Below the pieces are notes generated by a model. That model was not told the origin of the DNA. It saw only the letters and a program-made list of their open reading frames with translations, and did not search any database. This document shows positions 36,436-55,924 of a stretch of DNA of 64,000 nt, in pieces. Location of the stretch: the NCBI RefSeq assembly GCF_000189635.1, contig NW_002476417.1, forward strand, positions 558,001 to 622,000, read 5' to 3'. A program made the translations under genes and the position numbers. The stretch's first letter is position 1. Each line of letters begins with the position of its first letter. Source of the stretch: Tetrahymena thermophila SB210. Its lineage: Eukaryota; Ciliophora; Oligohymenophorea; Hymenostomatida; Tetrahymenidae.

Positions 36436-37169
36436 GTAGAACAAATACAAACTAAAAATAAAAATTTATTTTTCATTAAAATTAAATAAATAAAAGATTA
36501 AATTAATAAATTAAAGTGCATCATTGTATTTTATTTATCTTTTTATATTACATATTTATTTTTTTTTTAAATTTACCAACTTTAATATTAAACAGTAGAA
36601 TATATTCAAAATAAAAGAAGTCAATTTATAAAATAATATAAATTAAGGTAGATAAAATAATTTATAGAAGAGTTTTGATATTGAAGTTTAGATTATACTA
36701 ATCAAAATAAAATACTGAATGTATTAATTTTAATTACTAAAGAAAAACTTATTTTTTAATTATTTGCAAATAAAGCTCTTATTTTTTGTAATAAAATGTT
36801 TTCAATATAAATTTTATTCAAAAAAATATCTAATTATAAATGTATACGATTTAAATTACATTTTAAAGGAATAAAACACATTTCTTTTGATTTTTAAAGA
36901 CATTTTTACAACTTGTTACAACTTAATATGAAAAAGAAGATTTATGGAAGACTTTGAGAATATTTAGGGAAATTGTTAACTTTAAGTTAATAAATGTAAT
37001 GATTAATTGATTTTAAGTTGATAGCTTTTCAATAAATTTAGAGTAAACATCAATAAATTGATTGCCTAGAATTTTTTTATTTCATTATTTTTAAAAAGAT
37101 TTGTCTTGTTATGGATATTAATAATAATTTATAAAAATAAAAAACATTAGATAATTCATAAATAATAAA

Positions 37170-38060
37170 ATGGCTTTAAAACTCGCAAAAACTGTTCCAT
37201 TAAATGATGGAACTAATTTCCCAATTTTTGGATTAGGTACTTGGGAATCCAGAAACTAATAAGAAATGACCAACTTAATCAGATCTGCTTTGGATTTAGG
37301 ATATCGTCACATTGACACTGCCATTGTTTATGATAACTAAAAGATGATTGGAGATGCTCTAAAAACTATTTTTAGTGAAGGTAAATACAAGAGAGAAGAT
37401 TTATACATTGTTAGTAAGATCTTCCCTTTTAAGACTTGGGACACTGAATAAAAGATAAAATAAACATTAGAAGAATTACAAATCGAATACCTTGACTTAT
37501 TCCTTTTACATTGGACTTTTACTAGTCCCTCTAAAACCTTTGAAATTAATCATAAACCCGTCCATGTTATTTGGGCTGAATTAGAGCAAGTCTAATAAAA
37601 AGGATTGACAAAATCAATTGGTGTTTCTAACTTTAACGTCTAAAGTTTACTTGACTTATGGAGCTATGCTAAGGTAAAGCCAGTAGTTAACTAAATTGAA
37701 CTTCATGTTTTCTTGCAACAAAAAAGATTAGTAGAATTCTGTCAAAAAATTAATGTCCATGTTACTGCTTATTCTCCTCTTGCTAGATTTAATGAAATTG
37801 TCTAAAATAAAGTTTTGATAGAATTGGCATAGAAACACAATTCTACCGTTTCCTAAATTTTGCTTTCTTTCCTTTTATCTCAAGGTATTTCTGTCATTCC
37901 TAAGACTGAAAAGGTAAACAGATTAAAAGAAAACTTTGATTCTTAAGATATCTAGCTTTCTGAAGAAGAAATCAAAGCACTTAAAGACTTAGACACTAAC
38001 ACTAGAGTTTGGTAACCTGCTGACTTAGATTTCTTTGGAAACATTCCTATTTTCGATTGA
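37170..38060 (+). CDS. Aldo/keto reductase
   Basis: Single-exon gene, 296 residues, a usual length for the superfamily. It should catalyse NADPH-dependent reduction of an aldehyde or ketone in the cytosol. The complete catalytic tetrad is visible: Asp49 and Tyr54 in [13 protein letters not shown], Lys83 in IVSKIFP, His114 in LFLLHWT. Other family blocks are FPIFGLGTW (residues 17-25), [30 protein letters not shown] and the cofactor-binding [14 protein letters not shown] near the C-terminus. No targeting signal is seen. Substrate cannot be told from the sequence. Its twin at 42505 has about 20-25 amino-acid changes spread over the protein. Confidence 0.93.
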
Positions 38061-39780: not shown

Positions 39781-41442
39781 ATGGAAAATAATCATAATAA
39801 ATAATCATAAGTTTTAAAGTTGAAATCTTACGAAGTAAGATTGTAATGGAGCTGTCATGACTCACAAGATTAGTAAGACATTGATTTAGATTTATAGTGC
39901 TTAATATTGGATGACCTCTCTTAAATTGAGGATGTAGTTTACTACAATTAAAAAAGTTCTACTTTAGCAGATATTAAACTCTCAGAAGATTAAAGAGGTA
40001 CTACTGAAGAAAAATAAAATGAAATGCTTAAAATTAACCTCTCAGATTGCTAATATGGAATTAAATACTTAGCTATTTTAGTTTGCTCTCATGATGGCAT
40101 TACTCTTAGTAAGCTGAAAACTGGAGTTTTAGAAGTACTTGAAAATAATAAACCTATTTTGACTTCCTCTATTTGTGGTGAAGAACAAATTGTTTCCTAT
40201 TTGCCATGTATATTCTCAAAGCAATATGATGGTACTTGGATTCTCAATAAAACAAAAGCAGTGGATAAAGTTGGAAAAACCTTCATTGAATGTGAATCAA
40301 TAGTAAAATAAGGCTTATTATCATGTGGATTCGACGAGGGTCTCTTTTAAGAAGCTAAAAATTGGTGTGGTAACAAAACATTCGATCTAAAAAAAGATGA
40401 TGTTTTAGTTATTCCTAATACTATTATGAATAATGAAGTATTTGTTGGTCTTGGCTGGGATACCAGATGCGATATAGATTCTTCCATAGTAACATTTGAT
40501 TAATAAGGAAATATGATAGAAAATATCTACTTTGGAAAACTAAAAAGTGATAACTAGTCTATCATCCATCATGGAGATAATTTAACAGGAGTAGGAGATG
40601 GTGACGATGAAGTAATTACTATCAATCTTAAATAAGTAGATTAGAGAGTAGATACAATTTGGTCTGTAATTACAATATATTCTTAAGGAAAGAATTTTAG
40701 TGATGTCTCTGGTACTTTTTGTAGATTGGTAGATAAAAAAACTAATAAAGAGTTTTGTAGATATAATCTTTCTGATAAATCTTCTAGTTATTCTACTCAT
40801 AACGGATGTATTATGGCATGTATTAAGAGGTATAAGAACAATGTCTGGGCTATTTAACCAAAAGGCTTCTTGACATAAGGTAAAAGATATTCAAGTGAAG
40901 TAGCACCAATAATTAAAAACATTTTAAGTGGTAATCTAAGCTAAATAGTAATTATGAATGAAGAGGAAAAGTAGTTAAAGCCTTAATAATAATAAGAATA
41001 AAAATAAATAATATCTCAATCATAATAATTATAATAATCATAATTGTATAAATAAAATGAAAGTAGTAATAAAATATTTTTAGTTTCTTAAATGAGTTTT
41101 TAAGCATAAAACTAAAAAAATATGAATCCTTACATTAATGTTAGTTTAAATTAAAAGTAAGTACTAAAAACTATAGTAAAATAAAATGAAGCAAACCCTA
41201 ACTGGTCTGAAAAAATCTAATTGACTTTAAAAGAAGGAGATATTATTGACTTTAAAATATATAGTTATAATACATTTTGCTTTGATACTTTTTTAGGTTA
41301 GTCAAAAATAAGAATAAGTAAAGACATCCTTGATAAGAATAATGAAGAAAGTTATGAGAACTAGTTAATGGATTCTCACCAAAATTTAAATTACTAAAGT
41401 TAGATAAAATTTAAATTATAAAGTATTCCATAAAAATCTTGA
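39781..41442 (+). CDS. TerD-TerD-C2 protein, copy 1
   Basis: Single-exon gene of 553 residues. Two TerD-type domains are followed by a Gln-rich linker and a C2-like domain. Domain 1 (about 17-175) has DIDLDLQCLILD and VVYYNQKSS but lacks the acidic calcium motif (SEDQRGTTEEKQNE instead). Domain 2 (about 218-360) is canonical, with GLGWDTRCDIDSSI and HHGDNLTGVGDGDDEVI near residues 263-280, the acidic loop TerD proteins use to bind calcium. The linker (about 390-440) is mostly Gln from TAA/TAG. The C2-like part (about 447-553) shows NPYINVSLN, NPNWSEKI and CFDTFLGQSKI; some of the usual C2 Asp residues are missing. No signal peptide, so cytosolic. TerD proteins are known from bacterial stress-resistance loci and some protists; a calcium-dependent, possibly membrane-associated role is inferred. 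Confidence 0.88.
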
Positions 41443-42504
41443 TTGATAATCAGAAAAACTGAAAATGATTTATTGAAATGTATTATAACTGAATTTTTTA
41501 TTTATTAAAAATTTAAAAATTTAAAAAATAAATATTTAAATCTTTAATTTTCAAATACATACATACATACCTATATTAATTAGTATACTTACAACATATT
41601 CCATCAGCTGACTGAATATTGTTAATTACAGTATTTTTTTTAAGTTTAATTTTTTTAGCTTATTTTTGTAAGAATTGGTTATAAATAATAGTATTTAGCT
41701 AGCTAGTTTTTAATTTAAAATTTTAGATTTCTCAGTATTTTTTATTAAAGTGTAGAAAATACTTAAAATATAAATGAATATTATTTATTTTATAAATTCT
41801 AATTTTTTTCATTTTAATTTTTTATATTTTATTTTTTAAATTTGAATAAATTTATCTAATATTTAAATTATCAAATAAAACTTAATTTAACATATTTGTT
41901 CTATTATCAAACAAAGAGTTTTTTGCTTTTTTTCAAATATTTATTAAACTTTAAATTAAAAAATATTTAATAGAAGAATTTTGATATTGAAGAATAATTA
42001 TTTTAGAATTTATATTGTAGAAAATAAAATGACTAAACGAATAAATAAAATTATTTTTAAATATTAATAAAAGTTTTAGAAATTTGTAAATAAAATTTTA
42101 TTATTTGTTATTCAATATTTTATCTATTTTCAATTTATATTTTATTCAATAAAAATTTAATGATAATTTCTTAAGTTTTGAATACCTTTAAAAGAATAAA
42201 ACTCACTTATTTTGATTTTTAAAGATTATTTTTAGTATTTGCTAAAATTTAATATGAAAAAGAAGATTTATGGAAGACTTTGAGAATTTTTAGAGAAATT
42301 TTTAACTTTAAGTTATTCAAAGTAATGATTTATTAATTTTAAGCTAATATCTTTACAATCAATTAAAACGAAATATCAGTAAATAGACTATCTGGAAATG
42401 TTCTCTCTTTTCTAACATTATTTTAAAAAAGATTTGTCTTGATTAAGATCTGAATAATAATTTATAAAAAATAAAAACCTTAGATATTTCATATATTAAA
42501 AAAA
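41443..42504. other. Spacer across the duplication junction
   Basis: Contains the 3' flank of the first TerD gene, a short CATACATACATAC microsatellite near 41565, the junction of duplication units near 41960, and the upstream region of the second reductase. No gene seen. Confidence 0.5.
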
Positions 42505-43395
42505 ATGGCTTTAAAACTCGCAAAAACTGTTTTATTAAACGATGGTACTAAATTCCCAATTTTCGGATTAGGTACTTGGTAATCTACAAACTAATAAGAA
42601 ATGACCAACTTAATCAGATCTGCTTTGGATTTAGGTTATCGTCACATTGACACTGCTATTGCTTATGATAACTAAAAGATGATTGGAGATGCTCTAAAAA
42701 CTATTTTTAGTGAAGGCAAATACAAGAGAGAAGATTTATACATTGTTAGTAAGATCTTCCCTTATAAGAATTGGAACACAGAATAAAAGATAAAATAAAC
42801 ATTAGAAGAATTACAAATCGACCATCTTGACTTATTCCTTTTGCATTGGACTTTTGCTGGTCCCTCTAAAACCTTTGAAATTAATCATAAACCTGTCCAT
42901 GTTATTTGGGCCGAATTAGAGCAAGTCTAATAAAAGGGATTGACAAAATCAATTGGTGTTTCTAACTTTAACGTCTAAAGTTTACTTGACTTATGGAGTT
43001 ATGCTAAGGTAAAGCCAGTAGCTAACCAAGTTGAACTTCATGTTTTCTTGCAACAAAAAAGATTAGTAGAATTCTGTCAAAGAATAAATGTCCATGTCAC
43101 TGCTTATTCTCCTCTTGCTAGGTTTAATGAAATCGTTTAAAATAAAACCTTGACTGAATTGGCATAGAAGCATAATGCTACCGTTTCATAAATCTTGCTT
43201 TCTTTCCTTTTATCTCAAGGTATTTCTGTCATTCCTAAGACTGAAAAGGTTAACAGATTAAAAGAAAACTTTGATTCTTAAGATATCTAGCTTTCTGAAG
43301 AAGAAATCAAAACACTTAAAGGCTTAGACACTAACACTAGAGTTGTTTAACCTGCTGACATAGATTTCTTTGGAAACGTTCCTATTTTTGATTGA
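42505..43395 (+). CDS. Aldo/keto reductase, second copy
   Basis: Single-exon gene, 296 residues, the same length as the copy at 37170. The tetrad is intact: Asp49, Tyr54 ([13 protein letters not shown]), Lys83 (VSKIFPY), His114 (LLHWTF). It also keeps SIGVSNFNV and [10 protein letters not shown]. Differences from copy 1 include Gln for Glu after FGLGTW, Val53 to Ala beside the catalytic Tyr, FAGPSK for FTSPSK in the substrate loop, and VVQPADID for VWQPADLD near the C-terminus. The last two lie in parts of the fold that shape the substrate pocket, so specificity could differ. No frame damage; it should be an active NAD(P)H-dependent oxidoreductase. Confidence 0.93.
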
Positions 43396-44112
43396 AAATA
43401 AAATAATTATAATATTTTTTAAAAATATGTGTGTAATTTTCTTAATAAATTCAATGTTCTTGTATTTACTTTTGAAGAAATATAAAATGAATTAATCCTT
43501 TTACTTCTATATGAATTTGGTATAAAAGAATTTGAATAATAACCACCATAAAAATTGTTTTTTAATAAACAATATCTTTTAAAATTTTATAGTGTCTTAA
43601 TATATATTTTTTTTGAATATGATTTTTAAATATTAATTAATTTAGTGAATGAAATAAAATACTTAATAATAGAGATTAGCAAAAATAATTTCATTTTTTT
43701 TAGAATAGATAATTAATTTTAAAAACAATGTTTTAAAAATGAGAGATAATAATTATTCTTCTATCTTAATTATCTTTTATTAATAAATATCACCAAAAAT
43801 AGCTAATCTATACTATTTTCTTATTAAGTATCAGTATATAATTCATAATAAAAGAGATACTATTAAATTTATTTTTATCAAAAATTTTAAAACAACGAAA
43901 AAATCAAATTAATTTCTTACCACTGATTAATGAATTAATGGTGGTATTCATAGTTTATCTATTTTACTTTCTTTACAAATATGTTTCTATTTTTACAAGG
44001 ATAATGATTTAGAAGAAGATTTTAGTATCAGATGATCCTTTTAAATTAATAAAACCTAAAGGATTTAAAGTTTAATATTAATAAAAATCCAAATTTTTAA
44101 ATATTAAATAAG
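43396..44112. other. Spacer between reductase and TerD gene, unit 2
   Basis: About 0.7 kb. It aligns with the last part of the 38061-39780 spacer, including the proximal AGAAGAAGATTTTAG block and AATAAAACCTAAAGGATTT shortly before the ATG. These conserved bases are the best candidates for the TerD promoter in both units. Confidence 0.45.
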
Positions 44113-45876
44113 ATGGAATAATATCAAAATAAAAACTCACAAGCTTTAAAGTTGAATTCTTATGAAGTAAGATTGTAATGGAGCTGCAATGATTCACAAG
44201 ATTATTTACACGTTGATTTACATCTGTGGAGCTTAATATTGGATGACCTCTCTTAAATAGTGGGTTGGGTTGACTAAAGATAAAAAAGCTCTACTTTATT
44301 AGATGTCAAGTTTTCAGAAAATTAAAGAGAAACTATCGAAGAAAAATAAAATCAAATGCTTAAAATTAACCTTTCAGATTGCTAATACGGAATCAAATAC
44401 TTAGCAATTATGCCATATTCAACTCAACCCCTCTCTCTTTATAAGCTGAAAACTGCATTTTTAGAAGTGCTTGAAAATAACAAACCTATTTTGAAAATCA
44501 ATCTTTGGGAAGAAGAGCAATTTTTTTGCTATTTGTCATGTATCTTCTCAAAACAATATGATGGTACTTGGATTCTCTATCAGACAAAAGTACTGGATAT
44601 ATTTGGAAAGATATTTCTTGAATGCGAACAAATAGTGAAATAAGGGTTATTATAATGTGGATTTGACTATGGGCTCTTTTAAGAAGCGTAGAAATGGTCT
44701 GGTAAAAAAACCTTCAACCTAAAAAATGATGATTTTTTAGTAATTCCAAATACTATTTTAAATAGTGAAGTAATTTTTGATCTTGGCTGGGATACCAGAT
44801 GCGAAAAAGATTCTTCCATAATAGCATTTGATTAGGAAGGAAATATGATAGAAAATATCTACTCTACAAAAGTGAATAGTGAAATCTAGTCTAATGTCCT
44901 TCATGGAGATAATTAGACAGCAATAGGAGATAGTGAGGATGAAGTAATAACTATCAATTTTAAATAAGTAGATTAGAGAGTAGATACAATTTGGTTTGTA
45001 ATTACAATATATTCTAAAGGAATGAATTTTAGTGATGTCTCTGGTACTTATTTTAGATTGGTAGATAAAAAAACTAATAAAGAGTTTTGTAGATATAATC
45101 TTTCTGAAAAATCTTCAAATTATTCTACTCATAACGGATGTATTATGGCATGTATTAAAAGGTATTAAAAAAATGTCTGGGCTATTTAACCAAAAGGCTT
45201 CTTGACATAAGGTCAAAGATTTTCAAGCGAAGTAGCGCCAATAATTAAAAACATTTTAAGTGGTAATCTTAGCGAAATAGTAATTATAAATGAAGGGGAA
45301 AACTAACTTAAGACTGAAAATTAATAAGTAGAAAAATAAATGATACCTCAATAATAATTATAATAATCATTAAAAGCATATGAAAACAACATTACAATAA
45401 TTGAAGACTCTGAAATGGAATAATAGTAAGAAGAAAAATCACAAATATAATATTAACTTTTATTGTAAAATGAATATGAAAGTAACAATAAAATATTTTT
45501 AGTTTCTTAAATGAGTTTATTATTGTAAAACTAAAAAAATATGAATCCTTATATTACTGTTAGTTTAAATTAAAAGTAGGTACTTAAAACAATAGTAAAA
45601 AAAAATGAATTAAACCCTAATTGGTCTGAAAAAATTTAATTGACTTTAAAAGAAGGAGATATTTTAAACTTTAAAGTACACAGTAATAAAAAATTTTACT
45701 TTGATACTTTTTTAGGTTAATCAAAAATTATAATAACCAAAGATATCCTTGACAAGAATAATGAATAAAATTATGAGTACTAATTAATGGATTCTCAAAA
45801 CAACTTAAATTCAAATTACTAAATTTAGATTAAATTTAAATTATAAAGTATTCAATAATAATCTTAGTAATGCTGA
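44113..45876 (+). CDS. TerD-TerD-C2 protein, copy 2, with altered calcium loops
   Basis: Single-exon gene of 587 residues, the longest of the six, due to a longer Gln/Glu-rich linker. The same order of domains is present and the frame is open. The second TerD domain, canonical in the other copies, has changed at its metal site: the usual HHGDNLTGxGxGDDE reads LHGDNQTAIGDSEDE, and DIDSSI reads EKDSSI after GWDTRC. Domain 1 is also more diverged (HVDLHLWSLILDDL). The C2-like part keeps NPYITVSLN and YFDTFLGQSKI. Compared with its duplication partner at 39781 it has many replacement changes, while the neighbouring reductase pair is conserved. It may be losing calcium binding, gaining another role, or starting to decay. 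Confidence 0.82.
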
Positions 45877-47103
45877 AAATAATTTATTAAAATGTATTAT
45901 CATCAAAAAGATTCTTATTTATTAAAAATTTTTTACTATATAAATAATTTTATGTTAAATTTTCTAATTTACTCTAAATTGTGATAAGTTAACATAACAG
46001 TATATCAACCAACACTAATTTTAGTTATTGAGAGTACTTTGATAATATTAACGTCAAAACAAATAGCTTAAATTAATTAGAAATTCTACAAAAAATAATT
46101 TTTTATATTTCTATATTGGAAATTTAAAATAATTAAAGCATCTATAAAAATTCATAATTATTTTTAATTATTGTTAATTAATGTCTTAATTCAACAATAA
46201 AATGTCCTTTTTTTTAAACAGTTTCAATTAAGTATATTTTTAATAAATCTATAAGTGGGAAGGGAGTGGTGCAAATTAATCAAAATATACATATATCTAT
46301 ATTAATTATTATACTTTTCAATCAATATAATCCACTTACTTACTGATTATTGCTAATTGCAGTATTTTTTAAGTTGAGTTTTAAATTATTTATTTAGAAA
46401 ATAATTATATTACAAATTTTTTTTCACAATTTTTTTAGTAAAAAATAAATTGAGGATTTTTCTTAAAATTTATAAATAGTATGTATTTAGTATTTATGAA
46501 AAAAAAATAATAATAATTATGGTTTAATGATCTATTTAAAATTATAAATTTTATTTTAACAACAATAAAAAAGGCTAAAATGCCCAAAATTTATTATATT
46601 AATCCAGTTTATAACTTATTAATGAAAGTGCTCTTTATTTAATTAAATATTTGAATTATTAATTTTATTTAAGTTATGTTTATCTTTTTGAAATCAAGTT
46701 TTTATGAACAAAAATTTACTTTTTTTATAAAAAAATCAAATGAGTCAGTGTTAATTTTATAAATTACGTTTCCCTTAAAATATTATTTTTTTATGCGCTT
46801 TTTTTAAGGAAATACTAAATTAAAATAAATAAATATGAGAAAAATTAGTTTTACTCTATTTCAGATATTGGTAAGCAAATATGTTCCCTGATATAATTTA
46901 ATACAATTAGATTGGTGAATCTATTATATAACCTATTAAAATATTAACTAATTAACTATCTATTATAAAAAATTATTAACTTTTCTATATTTATTGATAG
47001 ATAGTTATATCCGTTTAAATAAATAATTAACTAACTAACTACACAAGTTGAATTTTTTAATACTAAATAAAAACTGTAAAAATTTCTAATATATCAAATA
47101 AAA
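45877..47103. other. Intergenic spacer
   Basis: About 1.2 kb. The first part continues duplication unit 2 (the block near 46300 matches one near 41580). A short G-rich string, GGGAAGGGAGTGGTG near 46258, and AACTAACTAACTA near 47028 are the only notable bases. No gene seen. Confidence 0.45.
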
Positions 47104-48723
47104 ATGGAATTTAATATTTAAAAAGAAATACAAATTTTAGAATCAAAATCTTTTGAAGTAAGATTGTAATGGAGAAGCTAAGACTATTAAGACTCTCAAG
47201 ATATTGATTTAGATCTATAATGCTTAATACTGGATGACCTTTCTTAAATAGAAGATGTTGTTTATTATAACAAGAAAAGTTCTTCTATTGCTGATGTTAA
47301 ACTTTCAGATGATTAGAGAGGCAATTATTAATAAAATTAAAATGAAATTCTTAGAATAAATCTTTCTGATTGCAAATATGGTATTAAATACCTTGTTATT
47401 TTAATATGCTCTCATGATGGAATTACTCTCAATAATTTGAAAACAGGTATTATAGAAGTAGTAGAGGATGATAAGGTAATACTTATTTAATCTATTTGTT
47501 GCGAAGAGCGTATTGTTTCATTTTTACCTTGCATATTTTAAAAATAATTTAATGGAGTTTGGCTTCTTCATTAAACAAAAGCAGTTGATAAGGTGGGAAA
47601 AACATTTATAGAATGTGAGTAAATAGTAAAATAAGGATTATTGTAATGTGGATTCGACGAAGGGCTATTTTAAGAAGCAAAAAATTGGAATGGCAATAAA
47701 ACTTTCAACCTTAAAAAAGAAGACTTTTTAATTATAAATGATAGAATTGCAAATAATGAAATTTATATTGGTCTCGGTTGGGATACTGAATGCGATATTG
47801 ACTCTTCTATTCTTACTTTTGACAAGTAAGGAAATATATTAGAGAATATTTATTTTGGTAATCTTAAAAGTTAAAATTAATCAATAATACATCATGGAGA
47901 TAATTTGACAGGAGAAGGAGAAGGTGACGATGAAGTATTAACCATCAAGCTAAAATAAATAGACTAAAGAGTAGATACTATTTGGTCTGTAATTACTATT
48001 TATTCTTAAAATAAGGCTTTTAATGAAGTTTCTGGAGCTTTTTGTAGATTAGTAGATAAGAAAACCAATAAAGAGTTTTGTAGATATAATCTTTCTAGTG
48101 AATCTATAAATAACTCTTCACATAATGGTTGCATTATGGCTTGCATTAAAAGATATAAAAACGATTGCTGGGCTATTTAACCAAAAGGATTCTTGACATA
48201 GGGCAAAAGGTATTCTAGTGAAGTGGTGCCCATAATTAAAAATATTTTAAACAATAACCTCAGCTAAATTCTAATTATAAAAGAAGAATAAGACAAAAAA
48301 CAAAAATAATAAAAATAAATATCATAACCGAATAACACATTCTAAATATCTTAAATATATGCAACTAATCTATCAGCATAAAGGTAGGGTTAAAAGATAG
48401 ACCCTTATTTGATAGTTTACCTAAACAAAACTAAAGTGCTTTAATCTACTGTACTTAATAATCCATAAATAATAAGTTGGCCTGAAAAAATATAATTAAA
48501 CTTAAAAGAAGGAGATGTTCTACTTTTTGAAATATATGATTATTACAAATTTTTTTTTGATAGTTTCTTAGGCTAATCAAAATTAAGAATTACAAAAGAA
48601 ATTTTAGAGAAAAATAATCAACAGAGCTATGAAATTTTTATAAAAGATTCTCAGTAAAAATCAAACCCTAATTATTGTGGCTAGATTAAATTTAATTTAT
48701 TTAATATCCAATTCAATTCTTGA
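47104..48723 (+). CDS. TerD-TerD-C2 protein, copy 3
   Basis: Single-exon gene of 539 residues, TGA stop. Domain 1 begins at SFEVRLQWRSQDYQDSQDIDLDL. Domain 2 has IGLGWDTECDIDSSILTFD and an intact acidic loop HHGDNLTGEGEGDDE, the form nearest the general TerD consensus. KKTNKEFCRYNLS and CWAIQPKGFLTQG close the domain. The linker is Lys/Gln-rich and shorter than in copies 1 and 2. The C2-like part is more diverged (DPYLIVYLNKTK, FFFDSFLGQSKL). It has no reductase partner. By sequence it is between the older pair (39781, 44113) and the younger array (49183, 51916, 54338), and it lies physically between them. Confidence 0.88.
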
Positions 48724-48960
48724 AAAAAAAAAAATTAAAAACAAAGTTCAATTTTATTAAATTTATTATTTTATTTAGCTAATAACAAAAACTATTAAAC
48801 TTTTATAAAAACCATAAATACCTTCTTATCTCTAAATAAAATATTTGATTAATATCTTATATATAAATATTTAATTTATTTATGTGTAAATAAATATAAC
48901 TACCTCTATCAAAATTGAATTAAATAAATTATTTATTTAATTTTTTTTCACATATAAGGA

Positions 48961-49048
48961 ATTAAGATTGTATTTAAACCTCAATTGAATTAGTAATCTT
49001 ATTTTATGTTATATAAGGCAGTAAGGATAAATTGTGAATTGATTTTAC
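48961..49048 (+). promoter_or_regulatory. Conserved upstream block of the TerD array, copy 4
   Basis: This block (ATTAAGATTG, then TTGAATTAGTAATCTTATTT, then AAGGATAAATT) lies about 220 to 135 bases before the ATG. It recurs at nearly the same distance before the genes at 51916 and 54338, while other spacer bases have drifted. It includes an ATTAAGATT and AATCTTAT pair that can base-pair as an inverted repeat. Confidence 0.45.
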
Positions 49049-49086
49049 ATGATTTATTATTTGTGATAAAATTGTTAATTAAGTTT

Positions 49087-49100
49087 TTTCTATATAGAAA
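49087..49100. promoter_or_regulatory. Promoter-proximal palindrome, TerD copy 4
   Basis: TTTCTATATAGAAA is a perfect palindrome 96 bases before the ATG, followed by GATCTTC. The counterparts at 51819 (TTTCTATATTGAAA) and 54241 (TTTCTATAAAGAAA) sit 97 bases before their ATGs. A dimeric factor site or part of a core promoter is possible; GAA/TTC arms recall heat-shock elements, but the spacing is not standard. Confidence 0.4.
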
Positions 49101-49182
49101 GATCTTCCTTCTTAAAATATCATTTTGAATAATTAAAAATCGTATAAATATTAAATCAAATTATACTTACTATTAAATTAAA

Positions 49183-50766
49183 ATGGAATTAAGTAATACT
49201 AAATAAACGTTAACTTTAAGTTAGAAATCTTATGAAATAAGATTGAAGTGGAGCAATCATGACTCTTAAGATTAATAAAATATTGATTTAGATTTACAGT
49301 GCATAATTATGGATGATATCTCATAAATAGAAGATGTTGTTTACTATAATTAGTAAATCTCAACTATTGCAGATGTTAAACTCTAAGGAGATTAAAGAGG
49401 AACAGATCAAAAAGCTTAAAAAGAGATAATAAAAATAAACTTATCTAATTGTAGTTATGGTATTAAATACTTAGCTATTTTAGTTTCCTCTCATGATGGA
49501 ATTCCACTCAATAAACTTTAATCTGCTGACTTGGAAGTAGTAGATAATGATAAGTCTATATTAAGCGTCTCAATTACAAATGAAGAATCGGCTCTCTCTT
49601 ATTTGCCATGTATTTTTGAAAAATAGTTTGACGGTACTTGGGTACTTCATTAAACTAAAGTATTTGATAAAGTAGGAAAAACGTTTATTGAATGCGAAAA
49701 AATAGTAAAATAAGGGTTATTATAATCTGGTTTTGACGAAGGAATCTTTTTAGAAGCAAAAAGTTGGTAGGGTAATAAAACGTTCAATTTAAAAAAGGAG
49801 GATGTCTTAATTATCCCAGATAATATTGCAGATAATGAAATATTTGTTGGTCTTGGTTGGGATACCAAGTGTGACATAGATTCTTCGATTCTAACTTTTG
49901 ACAAGGAAGGAAATATGATAGAAAATATATATTTTGGAAATCTGAGAAGTAACAACTAATCTATTATCCATCATGGAGATAATTTAACAGGAGTAGGAGA
50001 AGGTGATGACGAAGTGATAAGTATCCGTCTTAAACAAATAGATTAAAAAGTGGAAACAATTTGGTCTTGTATTACTGTGTATACTTAAGGAAAATCTTTT
50101 AGTGACATTTCTGGAGCCTTTTGTAGATTAGTAGATAAAAACTCGAAGAAAGAATTTTGTAGATACAACATATCTAATAAATCTTCTAAGCACTCTGAAT
50201 ACAATGGCTGTATTTTAGTTTGCATAAAGAGATACAAAAATAATTGTTGGGCCATTCAACCAAAAGGGTTCTTGATGAAAAAAACAAATCGCTCAAGTGA
50301 AGTTGCACCAAAAATTTATAGTATTTTAAATAACGATCTTAGTGATATAAAAATTTTGAAATAATAGGATAATCATTAGCCAAAATAATAATCAAACATA
50401 AATAAAAAATTATATTTATCATAAATACAGGGAATCAATTTATTAGGATCCAACTCAAAGAAAATAAAACCTTACATTATCATCTTTTAAAATAAAATAA
50501 AAATACTATAAACTTCTGTAGTAAATATAAAAGATGTTACTTGTTGGTCTGATTCATTATATCTATATTTAATAGAAGGAGATACTTTATTTTTTAAAGT
50601 ATATGGCAAAAATGTTTGTTGCTTTGATACTTTTTTAGGATAGTCTTAATTTAAAATTACTAGAGAGATTCTAGAAATAAAAGATGAATAAAACTATAAA
50701 ATTTAAATAACAAATTCTCAATCAAATTAAAATTTGTAAGGTTAGCTTTAGTTTAATCTAAAATGA
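49183..50766 (+). CDS. TerD-TerD-C2 protein, copy 4
   Basis: Single-exon gene of 527 residues. Domain 1 starts with SYEIRLKWSNHDSQD and has DIDLDLQCIIMDD. Domain 2 holds GLGWDTKCDIDSSILTFDKEG and HHGDNLTGVGEGDDE with all acidic residues in place. KSFSDISGAFCRLVDKN and KNNCWAIQPKGFL follow. The linker is short and no longer Gln-rich. The C2-like end has KPYIIIFQNK and CCFDTFLGQSQF. The protein ends a few codons earlier than copies 5 and 6 because the penultimate CAA-TCT block is preceded by TGA here. It belongs to the young three-gene array and keeps the conserved upstream block. Confidence 0.88.
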
Positions 50767-51915
50767 CAATCTTGAAAAAAAACAGTTAAATGATTATTTA
50801 ATTTATTGAGATTTGTATTATAATTTAAATGTATCTATGTCTTTTAAATTCTATAAAAAACCTTTGAATTATTTTTTTTAATATTATTAAAATTCAAAAA
50901 GATAGAAATTAATTGAAGTAGTTTTTCAATAATATAAATTTATTTGTAAAATATGCCATTTTCAAATAATTTTTATATTTCCAGTTAATTAGTAATTTAA
51001 ATATAATCTTCAATTTTTGTGTTGAAAATTTAATTAATAATAAACGCCTAATTAAAATCTAGTGGTTTTGATATTACTGAATTTAAAATTAAATATAAAT
51101 ATATTTGAAATTGTTAATTCTAATCCATTTTTTTAAATTATTTTTATTTATGATAAATTTTGGTGTTTGTTATTATTAAAATATGTCTTATAAGCAATGA
51201 AGGAATTAGAGTCTGTATTATTCGAAATCTATATTTTTTTATATGAAATACTATTAGGGTTTTTAATGCTTTCCATAAATTTTACATTTTTTTTATTCAA
51301 AATTACTGTTTTTTTTTGCAAATATTTTAAAATAGTCTATTATATTTCAATACATTGAAAATTTCTAAATTACTTATCCAAAGTGAATGAGGAAAATAAA
51401 ATCAATTGATATCAATATTTTAAAATTTAATATCTAAATCTATATATCGAAATAAATTTGATCTATAATTATGAATACTTTTAAATTTATCACACTAAAT
51501 TAATTTTATTGTTGAAAGTCAAATAAGTTTTTCTATTATAATTTTTTTTGATATTTCTAAAGAATAAATAAATATTAAGTTGAAATATAGGTTAATACTT
51601 TTTAATATGATAATATTAAATTTAAAAAATGTTTCAAAATAGGTTTGGAATATGGCATTGATTTTTATGGTCAATAAATAATATTTTTGCTTTGAATGGA
51701 ATTAAGATTGTTTTAAACTTTAATTGAATTAGTAATCTTATTTTATGTTATATAGGGCAGTAAGGATAAATTATTAATCGATTTTACTTTATTTGTGAAA
51801 AAAGCACTAATTAAATTTTTTCTATATTGAAAGAACTTCATTCTTTAAAAATAATTTGAATAATTAAAAAATCGAAAAAAATATTAAATCAAATTATACT
51901 TACTATTAAATTAAA
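50767..51915. other. Spacer between TerD copies 4 and 5
   Basis: About 1.15 kb of AT-rich sequence. The part before 51700 shows nothing; the last 215 bases carry the conserved upstream block and palindrome. Confidence 0.45.
51701..51832 (+). promoter_or_regulatory. Conserved upstream block and palindrome, TerD copy 5
   Basis: Bases 51701-51788 match the 48961 block almost base for base. TTTCTATATTGAAA at 51819-51832 matches the 49087 palindrome with one arm changed. Distances to the ATG (215-128 and 97) are the same as in the other two genes. Confidence 0.45.
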
Positions 51916-53523
51916 ATGGAATTAACGAAAACTAAATAAGCATTAACTTTAAGCTAGAAATCTTATGAAGTAAGATTGAAGTGGAGCAATCATGACTCTT
52001 AAGATTAGTAAAATAATGATTTAGATTTACAGTGCATCATTATGGATGATCTCTCATAAATAGAGGATGTTGTTTACTATAATTAGTAAATCTCAACTAT
52101 TGCAGATGTTAAACTCTAAGGAGATTAAAGAGGAACAGATCAAAAAGCTTAAAAAGAGATAATAAAAATAAACTTATCTAATTGTAGTTATGGTATTAAA
52201 TACTTAGCTATTTTAATTTCCTCTCATGATGGAATTACACTTAACAAACTTAAATCAGCTGATTTAGAAGTAGTGGAAAATGATAAGTCTATATTAAGCG
52301 TTTCAATTACGAATGAAGAATAGGCCCTCTCTTATTTGCCATGTATTTTTGAAAAATAGTTTGATGGTACTTGGGTACTTCATTAAACTAAAGTATTTGA
52401 TAAAGTAGGAAAAACATTTATTGAGTGTGAAAAAATAGTAAAATAAGGGTTACTATAATCTGGTTTTGATGAAGGAATCTTGTTAGAAGCAAAAAATTGG
52501 AAGGGTAATAAAGCTTTCAATTTAAAAAAGGATGATGTTTTAATTATCCCAGATAATATCGCAGATAATGAAATATTTGTTGGTCTTGGTTGGGATACCA
52601 AATGTGACATAGATTCTTCGATTCTAACTTTTGACAAGGAAGGAAATATGATAGAAAATATATATTTTGGAAATCTGAGAAGTAACAACTAATCTATTAT
52701 CCATCATGGAGATAATTTAACAGGAGTAGGAGAAGGCGATGATGAAGTGATAAGTATCCATCTTAAACAGGTAGATTAAAAAGTGGAAACAATTTGGTCT
52801 TGTATTACTGTATTTACTTAAGGAAAATCTTTTAGTGATATCTCTGGAGCTTTTTGTAGATTGGTAGATAAAAATTCGAAGAAAGAATTTTGTAGATACA
52901 ACATATCTAATAAATCTTCTAAGCACTCTGAATACAATGGTTGTATTTTAGTTTGCATTAAGAGATACAAAAATAATTGTTGGGCCATTCAACCAAAAGG
53001 GTTCTTGATGAAAGGAACAAGTCGCTCGAGTGAACTTCCACCAAAAATTTATAGTATTTTAAACAACGATCTTAGTGATATAGAAATTCTGAAAGAAGAG
53101 AATCATCATTAGCCAAAATAATAATAAGCATAATCAAACTTTGGTAAAAAATTCTATTTATCATAAATAAAGGGAGTTAATTTATTAGGATCAAACTCTA
53201 AAAAAATAAATCCTTACATAATTATCTTTTAAAATGAAATGAAAATACTTAAAACTTCTGTAGTAAATATAAAAGATGTTACTTGTTGGTCTGAATCATT
53301 ATAACTGTATCTAAAAGAAGGAGATACTATATATTTTAAAGTATATGGCAAAAATGTTTGCTGTTTTGATACTTTTTTAGGATAGTCTTAATTTAAAATT
53401 ACAAGAGAGATTCTAGAAATAAAAGATGAATAAAATTACAACATTTAAGTCACAGATTCTCAACAAAAATATAATTAAAATTTGTAAAGTTAGTTTTAAT
53501 TTAATCTAATATAACAATCTTGA
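51916..53523 (+). CDS. TerD-TerD-C2 protein, copy 5
   Basis: Single-exon gene of 535 residues, very close to copy 4 and copy 6. Domain 1 is YEVRLKWSNHDSQDQQNNDLDL, so one acidic residue of the usual DIDLDL strand is replaced. Domain 2 is canonical: IFVGLGWDTKCDIDSSILTFD and HHGDNLTGVGEGDDE. The linker is short with a His/Gln patch (ENHHQPKQQQQAQSN). The C2-like part has NPYIIIFQNEMK and CCFDTFLGQSQF. The frame is open throughout and the end matches copy 6 (NLIQQS then TGA). Cytosolic, with an inferred calcium-linked role. Confidence 0.88.
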
Positions 53524-53779
53524 AAAAAAACAATTAAATAACTATTTTATATACTAAGATTTGTATAATGATTTAAATGTTTGTAAGTCTTTTAAATTCT
53601 ATAAAAACCTTAGAATAATTTTCTTATTCATTAAAAAAATTCAAAAAGATAATTCAATTAGTTTTTCTATTTTTTATAATAAATAAATTATAATTTTATT
53701 TGTAAAATCTGACAAATTCTAATAATTTTCATATATTTATTTTGTTCATCAGTAATTTAAATACTGTAAAGGTTTATAT

Positions 53780-53905
53780 ATTAAGGCCGGTTTTAAAAAA
53801 ATGAAAATGTGGTTTAATTAAGGCCGTTCAAAAATTTGGTGCCTAATAAAGATTTTTAAAAATTAGTGTCTAATAAAAATATTAAGGACACTGTTTCTGG
53901 CTTAT
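53780..53905. repeat. Small GGCC-containing repeat
   Basis: ATTAAGGCCG occurs at 53780-53789 and 53817-53826, and ATTAAGGACA at 53880. Between them TTTGGTGCCTAATAAAGATT and ATTAGTGTCTAATAAA form a second short repeat pair. GGCC is rare in this window. The block is absent from the spacers before copies 4 and 5, so it looks inserted. Confidence 0.5.
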
Positions 53906-54120
53906 CCCATTAATTTTACTATTTATAATCAAATAACTTTTTCTATTATTTTTTGAAATTTCATTTCTAAAGAATAAATAAATATAAGTAAATACTTTTT
54001 AAATACTTTTTAATATAATTACATGAAGTTTTATATAATTAAAAAAAGTTATCGACACATGCTTAGGATATTGCATGGATTTTTATGGTCAAATAAAAAG
54101 TATTTTTTAGTATGATAAGG

Positions 54121-54254
54121 ATTTAAGAGTGCTTTTAAATTTCAGTTGAATTAGTATTCCTATTTTATGTTATTTTAAACATTATGGATAAATTGTGAAT
54201 AGATTTTACATTATTTGTGATAAAAATACTAATTAAGTTTTTTCTATAAAGAAA
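54121..54254 (+). promoter_or_regulatory. Conserved upstream block and palindrome, TerD copy 6
   Basis: Bases 54121-54209 are the most diverged copy of the upstream block, still with TTGAATTAGTATTCCTATTT and GGATAAATTGTGAATAGATT. TTTCTATAAAGAAA at 54241-54254 is the palindrome, 97 bases before the ATG, followed by GATCTTCTTTC. Confidence 0.4.
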
Positions 54255-54337
54255 GATCTTCTTTCTTAAAATATCATTTTGAGTAGTTAAAAAATCATAT
54301 AAATATTAAATCAAATTATACTTACTATTAAATTAAA

Positions 54338-55924
54338 ATGGAATTAAGTAACACTAAATAAATATTAACTTTAAGCTAGAAATCTTATGAAGTAAGATTG
54401 AAGTGGAGCAACTATGAATCTTAAGATTATTAAAAGATTGATTTGGATTTATAGTGCATCATTATGGATGATCTCTCATAAATAGTAGATGTAGTTTACT
54501 ATAATTAGTAAATCTCTACTTTTGTAGATGTTAAACTCTCAGGAGATTAAAGAGGAACAGATCAAAAAGCTTAAAATGAGATGATGAAAATAAACTTATC
54601 TAATTGTATCTATGGTATCAAATATCTAGCTATTTTAATTTCATCTCACGATGGAATTCCACTAAACAAACTTTAATCTGCTGATTTAGAAGTAGTAGAA
54701 AACAATAAGTCTATATTAAGCGTTTCAATTACGAATGAAGAAATGGCCCTCTCTTATTTGCCGTGTATTTTTGAAAAATAGTTTGATGGTACTTGGGTAC
54801 TTCATTAAACTAAAGTATTTGATAAAGTAGGAAAAACATTTATTGAGTGTGAAAAAATAGTAAAATTAGGGTTATTATAATCTGGTTTTGATGAAGGAAT
54901 CTTTTTAGAAGCAAAAAGTTGGTAGGGTAATAAAACGTTCAATTTAAGAAAGGAGGATGTCTTAGTTATCCCAGATAATATTGCAGATAATGAAATATTT
55001 GTTGGTCTTGGTTGGGATACAAAGATTGACATAGATTCTTCGATACTAACTTTTGACAAGGAAGGAAATATGATAGAAAATATATACTTTAGAAATCTGA
55101 AAAGTAAAAACAAATCTATTATCCATCATGGAGATAATTTAACAGGCATAGGAGAAGGCGATGATGAAGTGATAAGTATCCATCTTAAACAGGTAGATTA
55201 AAAAGTGGAAACAATTTGGTCTTGTATTACTGTATTTACTTAAGGAAAATCTTTTAGTGACATCTCTGGAGCTTTTTGTAGATTGGTAGATAAAAGATCA
55301 AAGAAAGAATTTTGTAGATACAACATATCTAATAAATCCTCTAAGCACTCTAAATACAATGGTTGTATTTTAGTTTGCATTAAGAGATACAAAAATAATT
55401 GTTGGGCCATTCAACCAAAAGGGTTCTTGTTGAAAGGAACACGTCGCTCGAGTGAAGTTGAACCAAAAATTTATAGTATTTTAAACAACGATCTTAATGA
55501 TATAGAAATTCTGAAAGAAGAGGATCCTAATTAATCAAACTTTAATAAAAAATTCTATTTATCATAAATAGAGGGAGTTAATTTATAAGGATCAAACTCA
55601 AAGAAAATAAATCCTTACATTATTATCTTTTAAAATGAAAAAAAAATACTATAAACTTCAGTTGTCAATATATAAGATGTTACTTGTTGGTCTGACTCAT
55701 TATAACTGTATTTAACAGAAGGAGATATTATATATTTTAAAGTATATATCTATAATTTTTGTTGCTTTGATACTTTTTTAGGATAGTCTTAATTTAAAAT
55801 TACAAGAGAGATTCTAGAAATAAAAGGTGAATAAAACTATAACATTTAAGTTACAGATTCTCAACAAAAATAAAATTAAAATTTGTAAGGTTAGCTTTAA
55901 TTTAATCTAAAATAACAATCTTGA
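54338..55924 (+). CDS. TerD-TerD-C2 protein, copy 6
   Basis: Single-exon gene of 528 residues. Domain 1 reads YEVRLKWSNYESQDYQKIDLDL. Domain 2 has GLGWDTKIDIDSSILTFD (the usual Cys after GWDTK is Ile here) and an intact HHGDNLTGIGEGDDE loop. The linker is the shortest of the six, the His/Gln patch of copy 5 being gone. The C2-like part has NPYIIIFQNEKK and CCFDTFLGQSQF, and the end matches copy 5. Many silent differences from copies 4 and 5 but few replacements suggest selection to keep the protein. Confidence 0.88.

What the first reader, a model, noticed from the sequence alone, without database searches (positions are those of the whole stretch)
39781..55924. Six tandem TerD-TerD-C2 genes in a eukaryote
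TerD is best known from bacterial stress and tellurite-resistance operons. Here it appears as a double domain fused to a C2-like domain and amplified in tandem. In every copy the first TerD domain has lost the acidic loop while the second (except copy 2) keeps GDNLTGxGxGDDE. This implies a built-in division: one calcium-binding unit and one structural or partner-binding unit, tied to a possible membrane-binding end.
Basis: partly seen in the sequence, partly recalled or inferred. Interest (0 to 1): 0.75.

Follow-up and report, generated by a model that had tools for sequence, protein, structure and literature searches.

The report
Six TerD–TerD–C2 genes in a ciliate
A ciliate-like genome segment carries six related genes whose protein joins two copies of a bacterial-type calcium-binding domain (TerD) to a C2 domain, probably as a calcium-responsive scaffold inside the cell; the parts are known, the combination and its likeness to a flagellar protein are the interesting bit.

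Summary
Six uninterrupted + strand genes (39781-55924), open only in the ciliate code, encode TerD–TerD–C2 proteins of 527-587 aa. Pfam finds the second TerD in 6 of 6, the first in 5 of 6 (not copy 2), and C2 in 6 of 6 (two clear the cut-off only when cut out). AlphaFold and Foldseek confirm a TerD fold for the first domain of copy 4. Corrections: an aldo-keto reductase gene, duplicated together with copies 1 and 2, interrupts the run; the first TerD lost only the second half of the acidic motif (5 of 6 keep DxD); C2 lost most calcium positions (1 of 5 kept in five copies, 3 of 5 in copy 3). So TerD2 is the only near-intact calcium site. Weak-plus-canonical TerD pairs already exist in bacteria, so that division is not new. 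Copy 2 evolves under relaxed constraint. Unexpected lead: TerD1 matches a chain of a Chlamydomonas radial-spoke structure (E 1.3e-6), and TerD profiles hit RSP1 of that entry. With published TerD proteins at the trypanosome flagellum attachment zone and Toxoplasma apex, this hints at a cytoskeletal or ciliary role. Function is untested.

The parts
39781..41442 (+). Copy 1, TerD-TerD-C2, 553 aa (about TerD1 39805-40275, TerD2 40378-40956, C2 41068-41424)
40573..40611 (+). Copy 1 TerD2 acidic loop GDNLTGVGDGDDE (putative Ca2+ site)
44113..45876 (+). Copy 2, 587 aa; diverged (TerD1 44137-44607 not recognised by Pfam; TerD2 44710-45288 with altered loop; C2 match from 45526)
47104..48723 (+). Copy 3, 539 aa (about TerD1 47128-47598, TerD2 47701-48279, C2 match from 48340)
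49183..50766 (+). Copy 4, 527 aa (about TerD1 49207-49677, TerD2 49780-50358, C2 match from 50407)
51916..53523 (+). Copy 5, 535 aa (about TerD1 51940-52410, TerD2 52513-53091, C2 match from 53161)
54338..55924 (+). Copy 6, 528 aa (about TerD1 54362-54832, TerD2 54935-55513, C2 match from 55559, seen only in the cut-out part)
37062..38060 (+). Aldo-keto reductase gene 1 (open frame; start codon not determined), in duplicated segment 1 (about 36.8-41.65 kb)
42454..43395 (+). Aldo-keto reductase gene 2 (open frame; start codon not determined), in duplicated segment 2 (about 42.1-46.4 kb)

Best explanation
A small, tandemly expanded family of probably cytosolic ciliate proteins built from two TerD beta-sandwiches and a C2 domain. 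Shown by sequence and predicted fold: the architecture, purifying selection over whole genes, and the motif differences between domains. Inferred: TerD2 binds Ca2+ through DxD plus GDNxTGxGxGDDE loops, as in bacterial TerD; TerD1 and C2, which have lost most of those acidic positions, act as calcium-independent docking units. The protein would be a calcium-responsive scaffold, most likely on cortical or ciliary cytoskeleton, because the eukaryotic TerD proteins whose position I could find (T. brucei FAZ28/FAZ30, two Toxoplasma apex proteins, and by fold a Chlamydomonas radial-spoke chain, taken to be RSP1) sit on such structures. The gene number reflects tandem duplication, with copy 2 decaying or changing role.
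For: Pfam TerD and C2 matches. AlphaFold of TerD1 of copy 4: pLDDT 85.4, pTM 0.85. Foldseek of it against PDB gives 7 chains with E<=0.001: 2kxt, 3ibz, 2qz7 A and B, 2qng (TerD or TerD-like entries), 9a6r_B (title names only GLPD-SCP2; counted as TerD-type by its match) and 7jtk_A of Chlamydomonas radial spoke 1 (E 1.3e-6, TMq 0.65); the next hit is E 0.011. The full copy 1 model ranks 7jtk_A first, E 1.1e-14, but rmsd 20.8. A TerD profile matches 'Flagellar radial spoke protein 1' (814 aa; 7jrj, 7jtk, 8glv) at E 2.6e-5; its 48-residue fragment alone hits Pfam TerD at E 3.7e-4, 20.4 bits, below the 25.3 cut-off. TerD2 motif as in 2kxt, whose entry title names calcium-binding properties. Highest 19-residue Kyte-Doolittle mean 1.41 in 6 proteins, so no transmembrane segment expected (the usual limit of about 1.6 is recalled). 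Whole-gene pairwise dN/dS 0.17-0.50 in 15 of 15 pairs. Published: TerD in FAZ28 and FAZ30 (PMC10953051, passage seen); TerD in two Toxoplasma apex proteins (PMC7951837, table passage seen).
Against: No localisation, expression or binding data for these proteins. Domain arrangement in the full model is uncertain (pTM 0.45). That 7jtk_A is RSP1 is inferred, not stated by the tool; single RSP1 stretches are weak (E 0.021, 83 and 2e4), and copy 1 alone or the six-protein profile does not find RSP1. Tetrahymena Rsp1 is 221 aa, and the Tetrahymena radial-spoke paper was not among the four papers that hold both TerD and Tetrahymena (PMC12399478; its supplements not seen), so spoke membership is not supported. 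Ca2+ binding of TerD2 rests on motif conservation; the stretch before its first acidic loop is six residues shorter than in 2kxt and 3ibz. Within TerD2 copies 1 and 2 differ at dN/dS 0.68 and the linker exceeds 1 in most pairs. Dictyostelium cytosolic TerD proteins (recalled) would not fit a cytoskeletal rule.
Confidence: 0.45

Rival explanations
1. Cytosolic stress or metal-handling protein: the family works like the bacterial Ter system, buffering or sensing metals and oxidants, and was amplified for dosage.
For: TerD2 fits a bacterial TerD profile at 105-147 bits; tandem amplification and co-duplication with an aldo-keto reductase, an enzyme class often tied to detoxification (general knowledge).
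Against: No other ter-type gene among the 13 stretches scored as coding, though the score was trained on these genes and TerB/TerC were not searched for; bacterial Ter function is recalled to need such partners. Eukaryotic TerD proteins with a published position found here are cytoskeletal (PMC10953051, PMC7951837).
Confidence: 0.25
2. Membrane-traffic or lipid-binding adaptor: the C2 domain docks to phospholipid without Ca2+ and the TerD pair recruits cargo or regulators.
For: C2 domain in 6 of 6; sequence matches include plant CAR4 (AT3G17980) and PKC eta and epsilon C2 domains; the full model also matches C2 chains such as 3jzy, E 4.7e-4.
Against: Ca2+ positions mostly gone; no lipid-binding patch was tested; C2 is the least conserved domain between subgroups (dN 0.33-0.41 against 0.13-0.26 for TerD2). 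The C2 Foldseek matches lie near noise: botulinum binding-domain chains appear at similar E-values.
Confidence: 0.25
3. Partly decaying duplicate family: only some copies matter; the array is ordinary ciliate tandem duplication without special function.
For: Copy 2 carries 56 private changes at columns invariant in the other five, against 7, 33, 7, 3 and 6 in copies 1, 3, 4, 5, 6; 54 of the 56 lie at residue 353 or before. Rough copy 2 branch dN/dS is 0.5-1.1 depending on the outgroup copy, against 0.1-0.4 for copy 1 (my arithmetic). Another tandem family lies beside the array.
Against: All six reading frames are open and whole-gene pairwise dN/dS is 0.50 or less in 15 of 15 pairs.
Confidence: 0.2

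Closest known systems
Bacterial TerD (KP-TerD 2kxt, S. coelicolor TerD 3ibz; Pfam PF02342)
   Same: TerD2 of copy 1 is 41% and 40% identical over the aligned core, with the same GDNxTGxGxGDDE loop and DxD
   Different: These are single-domain chains; here TerD is doubled, fused to C2, in a eukaryote-type gene, with six residues fewer before the first acidic loop
Bacterial two-TerD proteins (actinobacterial, and TerA-like; the TerA label is recalled)
   Same: Weak N-terminal plus strong C-terminal TerD in 14 of 20 two-TerD ORFs
   Different: No C2 search was made in them; ciliate TerD1 fits plain TerD (40-52 bits, five copies) better than the TerA-type (11-18) or weak-domain (23-29) profiles
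Chlamydomonas radial spoke protein RSP1
   Same: A TerD-type fold detected by Foldseek in 7jtk_A and by profile in RSP1
   Different: RSP1 is a MORN-domain spoke-head protein (PMC12399478, passage); the six ciliate proteins show no MORN hit in Pfam; Tetrahymena Rsp1 is only 221 aa (same passage)
T. brucei FAZ28/FAZ30 and Toxoplasma apex TerD proteins
   Same: Eukaryotic proteins with TerD domains at cytoskeletal structures (PMC10953051, PMC7951837, passages)
   Different: Their sequences and domain order were not available here for comparison
C2 domains (CAR4, PKC)
   Same: Pfam C2 and sequence matches
   Different: Four of five Ca2+ aspartates missing in five copies, two of five in copy 3

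Membership tests
TerD domain family (PF02342), second domain | Profile match above curated cut-off | tested here: met
   6 of 6, 80.3-147.5 bits for the whole protein, best stretch in the second domain, cut-off 25.3
TerD domain family (PF02342), first domain | Profile match above curated cut-off | tested here: met
   5 of 6 met; copy 2 not met
TerD domain family (PF02342), first domain | TerD beta-sandwich fold | tested here: met
   Copy 4 only: model pLDDT 85.4, TMq 0.71-0.81 to six TerD-type chains
Calcium-binding TerD | Both acidic loops (DxD and GDNxTGxGxGDDE) | tested here: inconclusive
   TerD2: both present in 5 of 6, with a six-residue shortening before the first; TerD1: first only, 5 of 6; copy 2 altered in both domains
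Calcium-binding TerD | Measured Ca2+ binding | not testable with these tools
   needs protein
C2 domain (PF00168) | Profile match above cut-off | tested here: met
   4 of 6 as whole proteins; copies 4 and 6 only when the C-terminal part is scanned alone
Calcium-dependent C2 | Five aspartate ligands (positions taken from CAR4; their role is recalled) | tested here: not met
   1 of 5 in five copies, 3 of 5 in copy 3
RSP1 / radial spoke head protein | MORN repeats | tested here: not met
   No MORN match at E<=1 in 6 of 6 proteins
RSP1 / radial spoke head protein | Presence in axonemal radial spokes | not testable with these tools
   needs proteomics or tagging
Bacterial ter stress system | Linked ter partner genes | tested here: inconclusive
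   None among the 13 stretches scored as coding, seven of the others being lectin/furin-like or aldo-keto reductase; the score was trained on the array and TerB/TerC were not searched for

The most novel reading that the evidence does not exclude
Eukaryotes took up TerD as a calcium-responsive building block of flagella and related cell-cortex structures: the TerD part of Chlamydomonas RSP1, the trypanosome attachment-zone TerD proteins, the apicomplexan apex TerD proteins and this ciliate TerD-TerD-C2 family would share one ancestry and one job, sensing Ca2+ to adjust ciliary or cortical mechanics. The linked aldo-keto reductase would then echo Chlamydomonas RSP5 (an aldo-keto reductase-like spoke protein, recalled), although Tetrahymena spokes are reported to lack RSP5 (PMC12399478).
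Probability: 0.15. Interest if true: 0.65.

Novelty: new variant of a known kind. Interest (0 to 1): 0.36.

Why it matters
TerD function is unclear even in bacteria (recalled). A eukaryotic family with one near-intact and one altered TerD domain in the same protein, in six natural versions and in what looks like a genetically tractable kind of organism, would let the calcium site be tested directly. The TerD fold in a radial-spoke chain gives a concrete hypothesis: TerD as a cytoskeletal calcium module in eukaryotes.

Tried and rejected
Rejected: that TerD1 is not a TerD domain (by profile in copies 1 and 3-6, by fold in copy 4). Rejected: that TerD1 is a TerA-type domain; its DLDL plus GDxR look suggested it, but the plain TerD profile scores higher. 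Rejected as far as looked: compensating frameshifts as the cause of the odd stretches in copy 2; the two DNA stretches of copies 1 and 2 that I laid side by side (codons 1-150 and 211-290) stay in register and differ by scattered substitutions. Corrected on re-check: I first read copy 2 as neutral; with copies 3, 4, 5 or 6 as outgroup the rough branch dN/dS is about 1.1, 0.5, 0.6, 0.6, so relaxed constraint is all that can be said.

Inconclusive: domain phylogeny. TerD1 and TerD2 of the six copies each form one group (SH-aLRT 100 each), so the internal duplication is older than the gene expansion, but TerD1 hangs on a branch of length 3.33 and cannot be placed. On the shared columns, holding TerD1 and TerD2 together is not rejected (p-AU 0.736; that tree had the higher likelihood and the free search missed it). 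Whether TerD duplication came before C2 fusion cannot be told: all six have both.

Led nowhere: viral-contig scans with the six-protein alignment and with copy 6 found no relative; with the TerD1 alignment 18 viral loci matched and were not studied. BFVD fold search: best hit is a Rhizobium phage TerD-like protein, the other better hits are mostly unnamed, and a Tetraselmis virus protein is at E 2.1e-5. NCBIfam gave only weak matches to a RING/SCO0854 family, 17.0 and 20.8 bits against a 600 cut-off. tRNA (bacterial code) and Rfam scans empty. Papers: ten searches; no listed title or abstract start describes a TerD-C2 protein; lists were capped (20 of 330; 15 of 17). Only passages were seen of PMC3710099 and PMC3536430, of no use here. 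The library holds open-licence papers only. No eukaryotic genome collection was available, so close relatives could not be sought and the species is not identified.
Full report
What was checked. Under the ciliate code (TAA/TAG = Gln, TGA the only stop) the stretch 39781-55924 holds six + strand genes of 553, 587, 539, 527, 535 and 528 codons. In the standard code only short open stretches are listed there, the longest 118 aa on either strand. The window is 17-30% GC in 2-kb steps. This fits an oligohymenophorean ciliate such as Tetrahymena (general knowledge); the species was not identified because no eukaryotic collection was at hand.

Domains. Pfam on whole proteins: TerD in 6 of 6 (80.3-147.5 bits, cut-off 25.3), best stretch always the second domain; C2 in 5 of 6, of which copy 4 is below cut-off. 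Scanning parts alone: TerD in the first 180 residues of 5 of 6 (not copy 2); C2 in copies 4 and 6 at 23.5 and 26.7 bits against 22. AlphaFold of full copy 1 gave mean pLDDT 75.6 and pTM 0.45, with poorly modelled stretches at 186-204 and 394-427 among others, so the domains are credible and their arrangement is not. TerD1 of copy 4 alone gave pLDDT 85.4 and pTM 0.85.

Calcium motifs. Bacterial TerD has an acidic DxDxS loop and a GDNxTGxGxGDDE loop; the 2kxt entry title names calcium-binding properties. That both loops bind Ca2+ is recalled from the KP-TerD work, whose paper was not read. TerD2 keeps the second loop in 5 of 6, with CDIDSS or IDIDSS for the first; the stretch before it is six residues shorter than in 2kxt and 3ibz. 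TerD1 keeps (I/N)DLDLQ in 5 of 6 and has EDQRGTTEEKQNE, DDQRGNYQQNQNE or GDQRGTDQKAQ(K/N)E in place of the second loop; copy 2 has VDLHLW and ENQRETIEEKQNQ there, and CEKDSS and GDNQTAIGDSEDE in TerD2. In the C2 domain, of five aspartates of plant CAR4 taken as Ca2+ ligands (recalled), one is kept in five copies and three in copy 3. So at most one near-intact calcium site per protein is expected, in TerD2.

History of the array. The six genes fall into copies 1-2, copy 3 and copies 4-6. Synonymous divergence is 0.15-0.21 within 4-6, 0.28 between 1 and 2, and 0.83-1.27 between groups; whole-gene dN/dS is 0.17-0.50 in 15 pairs; by region it is higher in places (0.68 for TerD2 of copies 1 and 2, above 1 in most linker pairs). 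Copies 1 and 2 lie in a duplicated segment that also holds an aldo-keto reductase gene: DNA of about 36.8-41.65 kb and 42.1-46.4 kb aligns in blocks at 79-87% identity, plus one 33-base block at 91%, and the two reductases have dS 0.175 and dN 0.038. Copy 2 has 56 private changes at columns invariant in the other five, against 7, 33, 7, 3 and 6 in copies 1, 3, 4, 5, 6; 54 of the 56 lie at residue 353 or before. From the pairwise values the copy 2 branch has a rough dN/dS of 1.1, 0.5, 0.6 or 0.6 with copy 3, 4, 5 or 6 as outgroup, and copy 1 about 0.1, 0.4, 0.3 and 0.3: relaxed constraint or a changed role in copy 2, not proven neutrality.

Bacterial comparison. In them 201 TerD domains were found in 181 ORFs, 20 ORFs having two; 14 of the 20 have a weak N-terminal and a strong C-terminal domain, the other 6 have two weak ones. 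Doubled TerD with one canonical half is thus a layout bacteria have too. The scan pattern selects canonical domains, and close relatives are over-represented. In the tree of 94 domains, TerD1 and TerD2 of the six genes each group at SH-aLRT 100, so TerD duplication predates the array; placement of TerD1 is unreliable, and a common origin of TerD1 and TerD2 is not rejected.

The radial-spoke lead. With TerD1 alone, Foldseek returned seven PDB chains at E<=0.001: six TerD-type chains (9a6r_B, titled only GLPD-SCP2, counted among them) and 7jtk_A of a Chlamydomonas radial spoke 1 structure (E 1.3e-6, probability 1.0, TMq 0.65); the next best is E 0.011. With the full model 7jtk_A is first (E 1.1e-14, 502 columns) but rmsd is 20.8, so only domain-level likeness counts; that list also holds two botulinum chains at E<=0.001 with probability 0.25, which I take as noise. 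A sequence profile of TerD1 plus bacterial TerD hits 'Flagellar radial spoke protein 1' (814 aa, in 7jrj, 7jtk, 8glv) at E 2.6e-5 for the whole sequence; its three single stretches have E 83, 0.021 and 2e4. A broader profile gives E 4.8e-4; the six-protein profile does not find it among 19 matches, nor does copy 1 alone among 22. The matched 48-residue piece scores 20.4 bits for Pfam TerD, under the cut-off, and a second 38-residue piece hits nothing. That 7jtk_A is RSP1 is my inference. One paper states that Chlamydomonas RSP1 (814 aa) is about four times larger than Tetrahymena Rsp1 (221 aa) and that Tetrahymena spokes lack RSP5 (PMC12399478; passages, outline and section 11 seen). Another notes RSP5 as an extra Chlamydomonas head-neck subunit (PMC10774353, passages). 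So the ciliate genes are not RSP1 orthologues by architecture, and a spoke location is unsupported.

Other eukaryotic TerD proteins in print. T. brucei FAZ28 and FAZ30 (PMC10953051, passage) and two Toxoplasma proteins listed at the apex (PMC7951837, table passage). No listed paper title or abstract start describes a TerD-C2 protein; subscription papers, including the main comparative study of Ter systems (recalled, asked for and not held), could not be checked, so the architecture may already be known or automatically annotated elsewhere.

Reading. Best supported: probably cytosolic calcium-responsive scaffold with one calcium site (TerD2) and two calcium-independent docking modules (TerD1, C2), placed at cortex or cilia by analogy. 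Architecture, selection and motif state are shown; calcium binding, docking and place are inferred. The finding is real and moderately interesting; its strongest novelty is the TerD-type fold in a radial-spoke chain, which lies outside the window.

Noticed in passing
window 735-36435: Five large + strand open frames in a row (1218-1449 codons): 3 of 5 reach the Pfam cut-off for H-type lectin, 1 of 5 for a furin-like cysteine-rich repeat (two more below cut-off): another tandem family next to the TerD array.
   Followed up: partly
window 37062-38060 and 42454-43395: Two closely similar aldo-keto reductase genes, each in a duplicated segment that also holds a TerD-TerD-C2 gene. Chlamydomonas RSP5 is recalled to be aldo-keto reductase-like; likely coincidence.
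   Followed up: partly
window 44113-45171: Copy 2 diverges asymmetrically: 54 of its 56 private changes lie in the first 353 residues while the rest stays close to the other copies.
   Followed up: partly
PDB 7jtk chain A, outside the window: A chain of Chlamydomonas radial spoke 1, probably RSP1, has a TerD-type fold by Foldseek, and TerD profiles match RSP1; no paper in the searched library holds both 'radial spoke' and 'TerD'.
   Followed up: partly
window 46408-46500: Weak tblastn match (48% over 31 aa, E 0.045) to the C2 end of copy 3, upstream of copy 3; possible remnant of a lost copy or chance.
   Followed up: no
L081-L098: Eighteen viral contigs encode relatives of the TerD1 query; BFVD also lists a 1248-residue Tetraselmis virus protein with a partial match, E 2.1e-5.
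   Followed up: no
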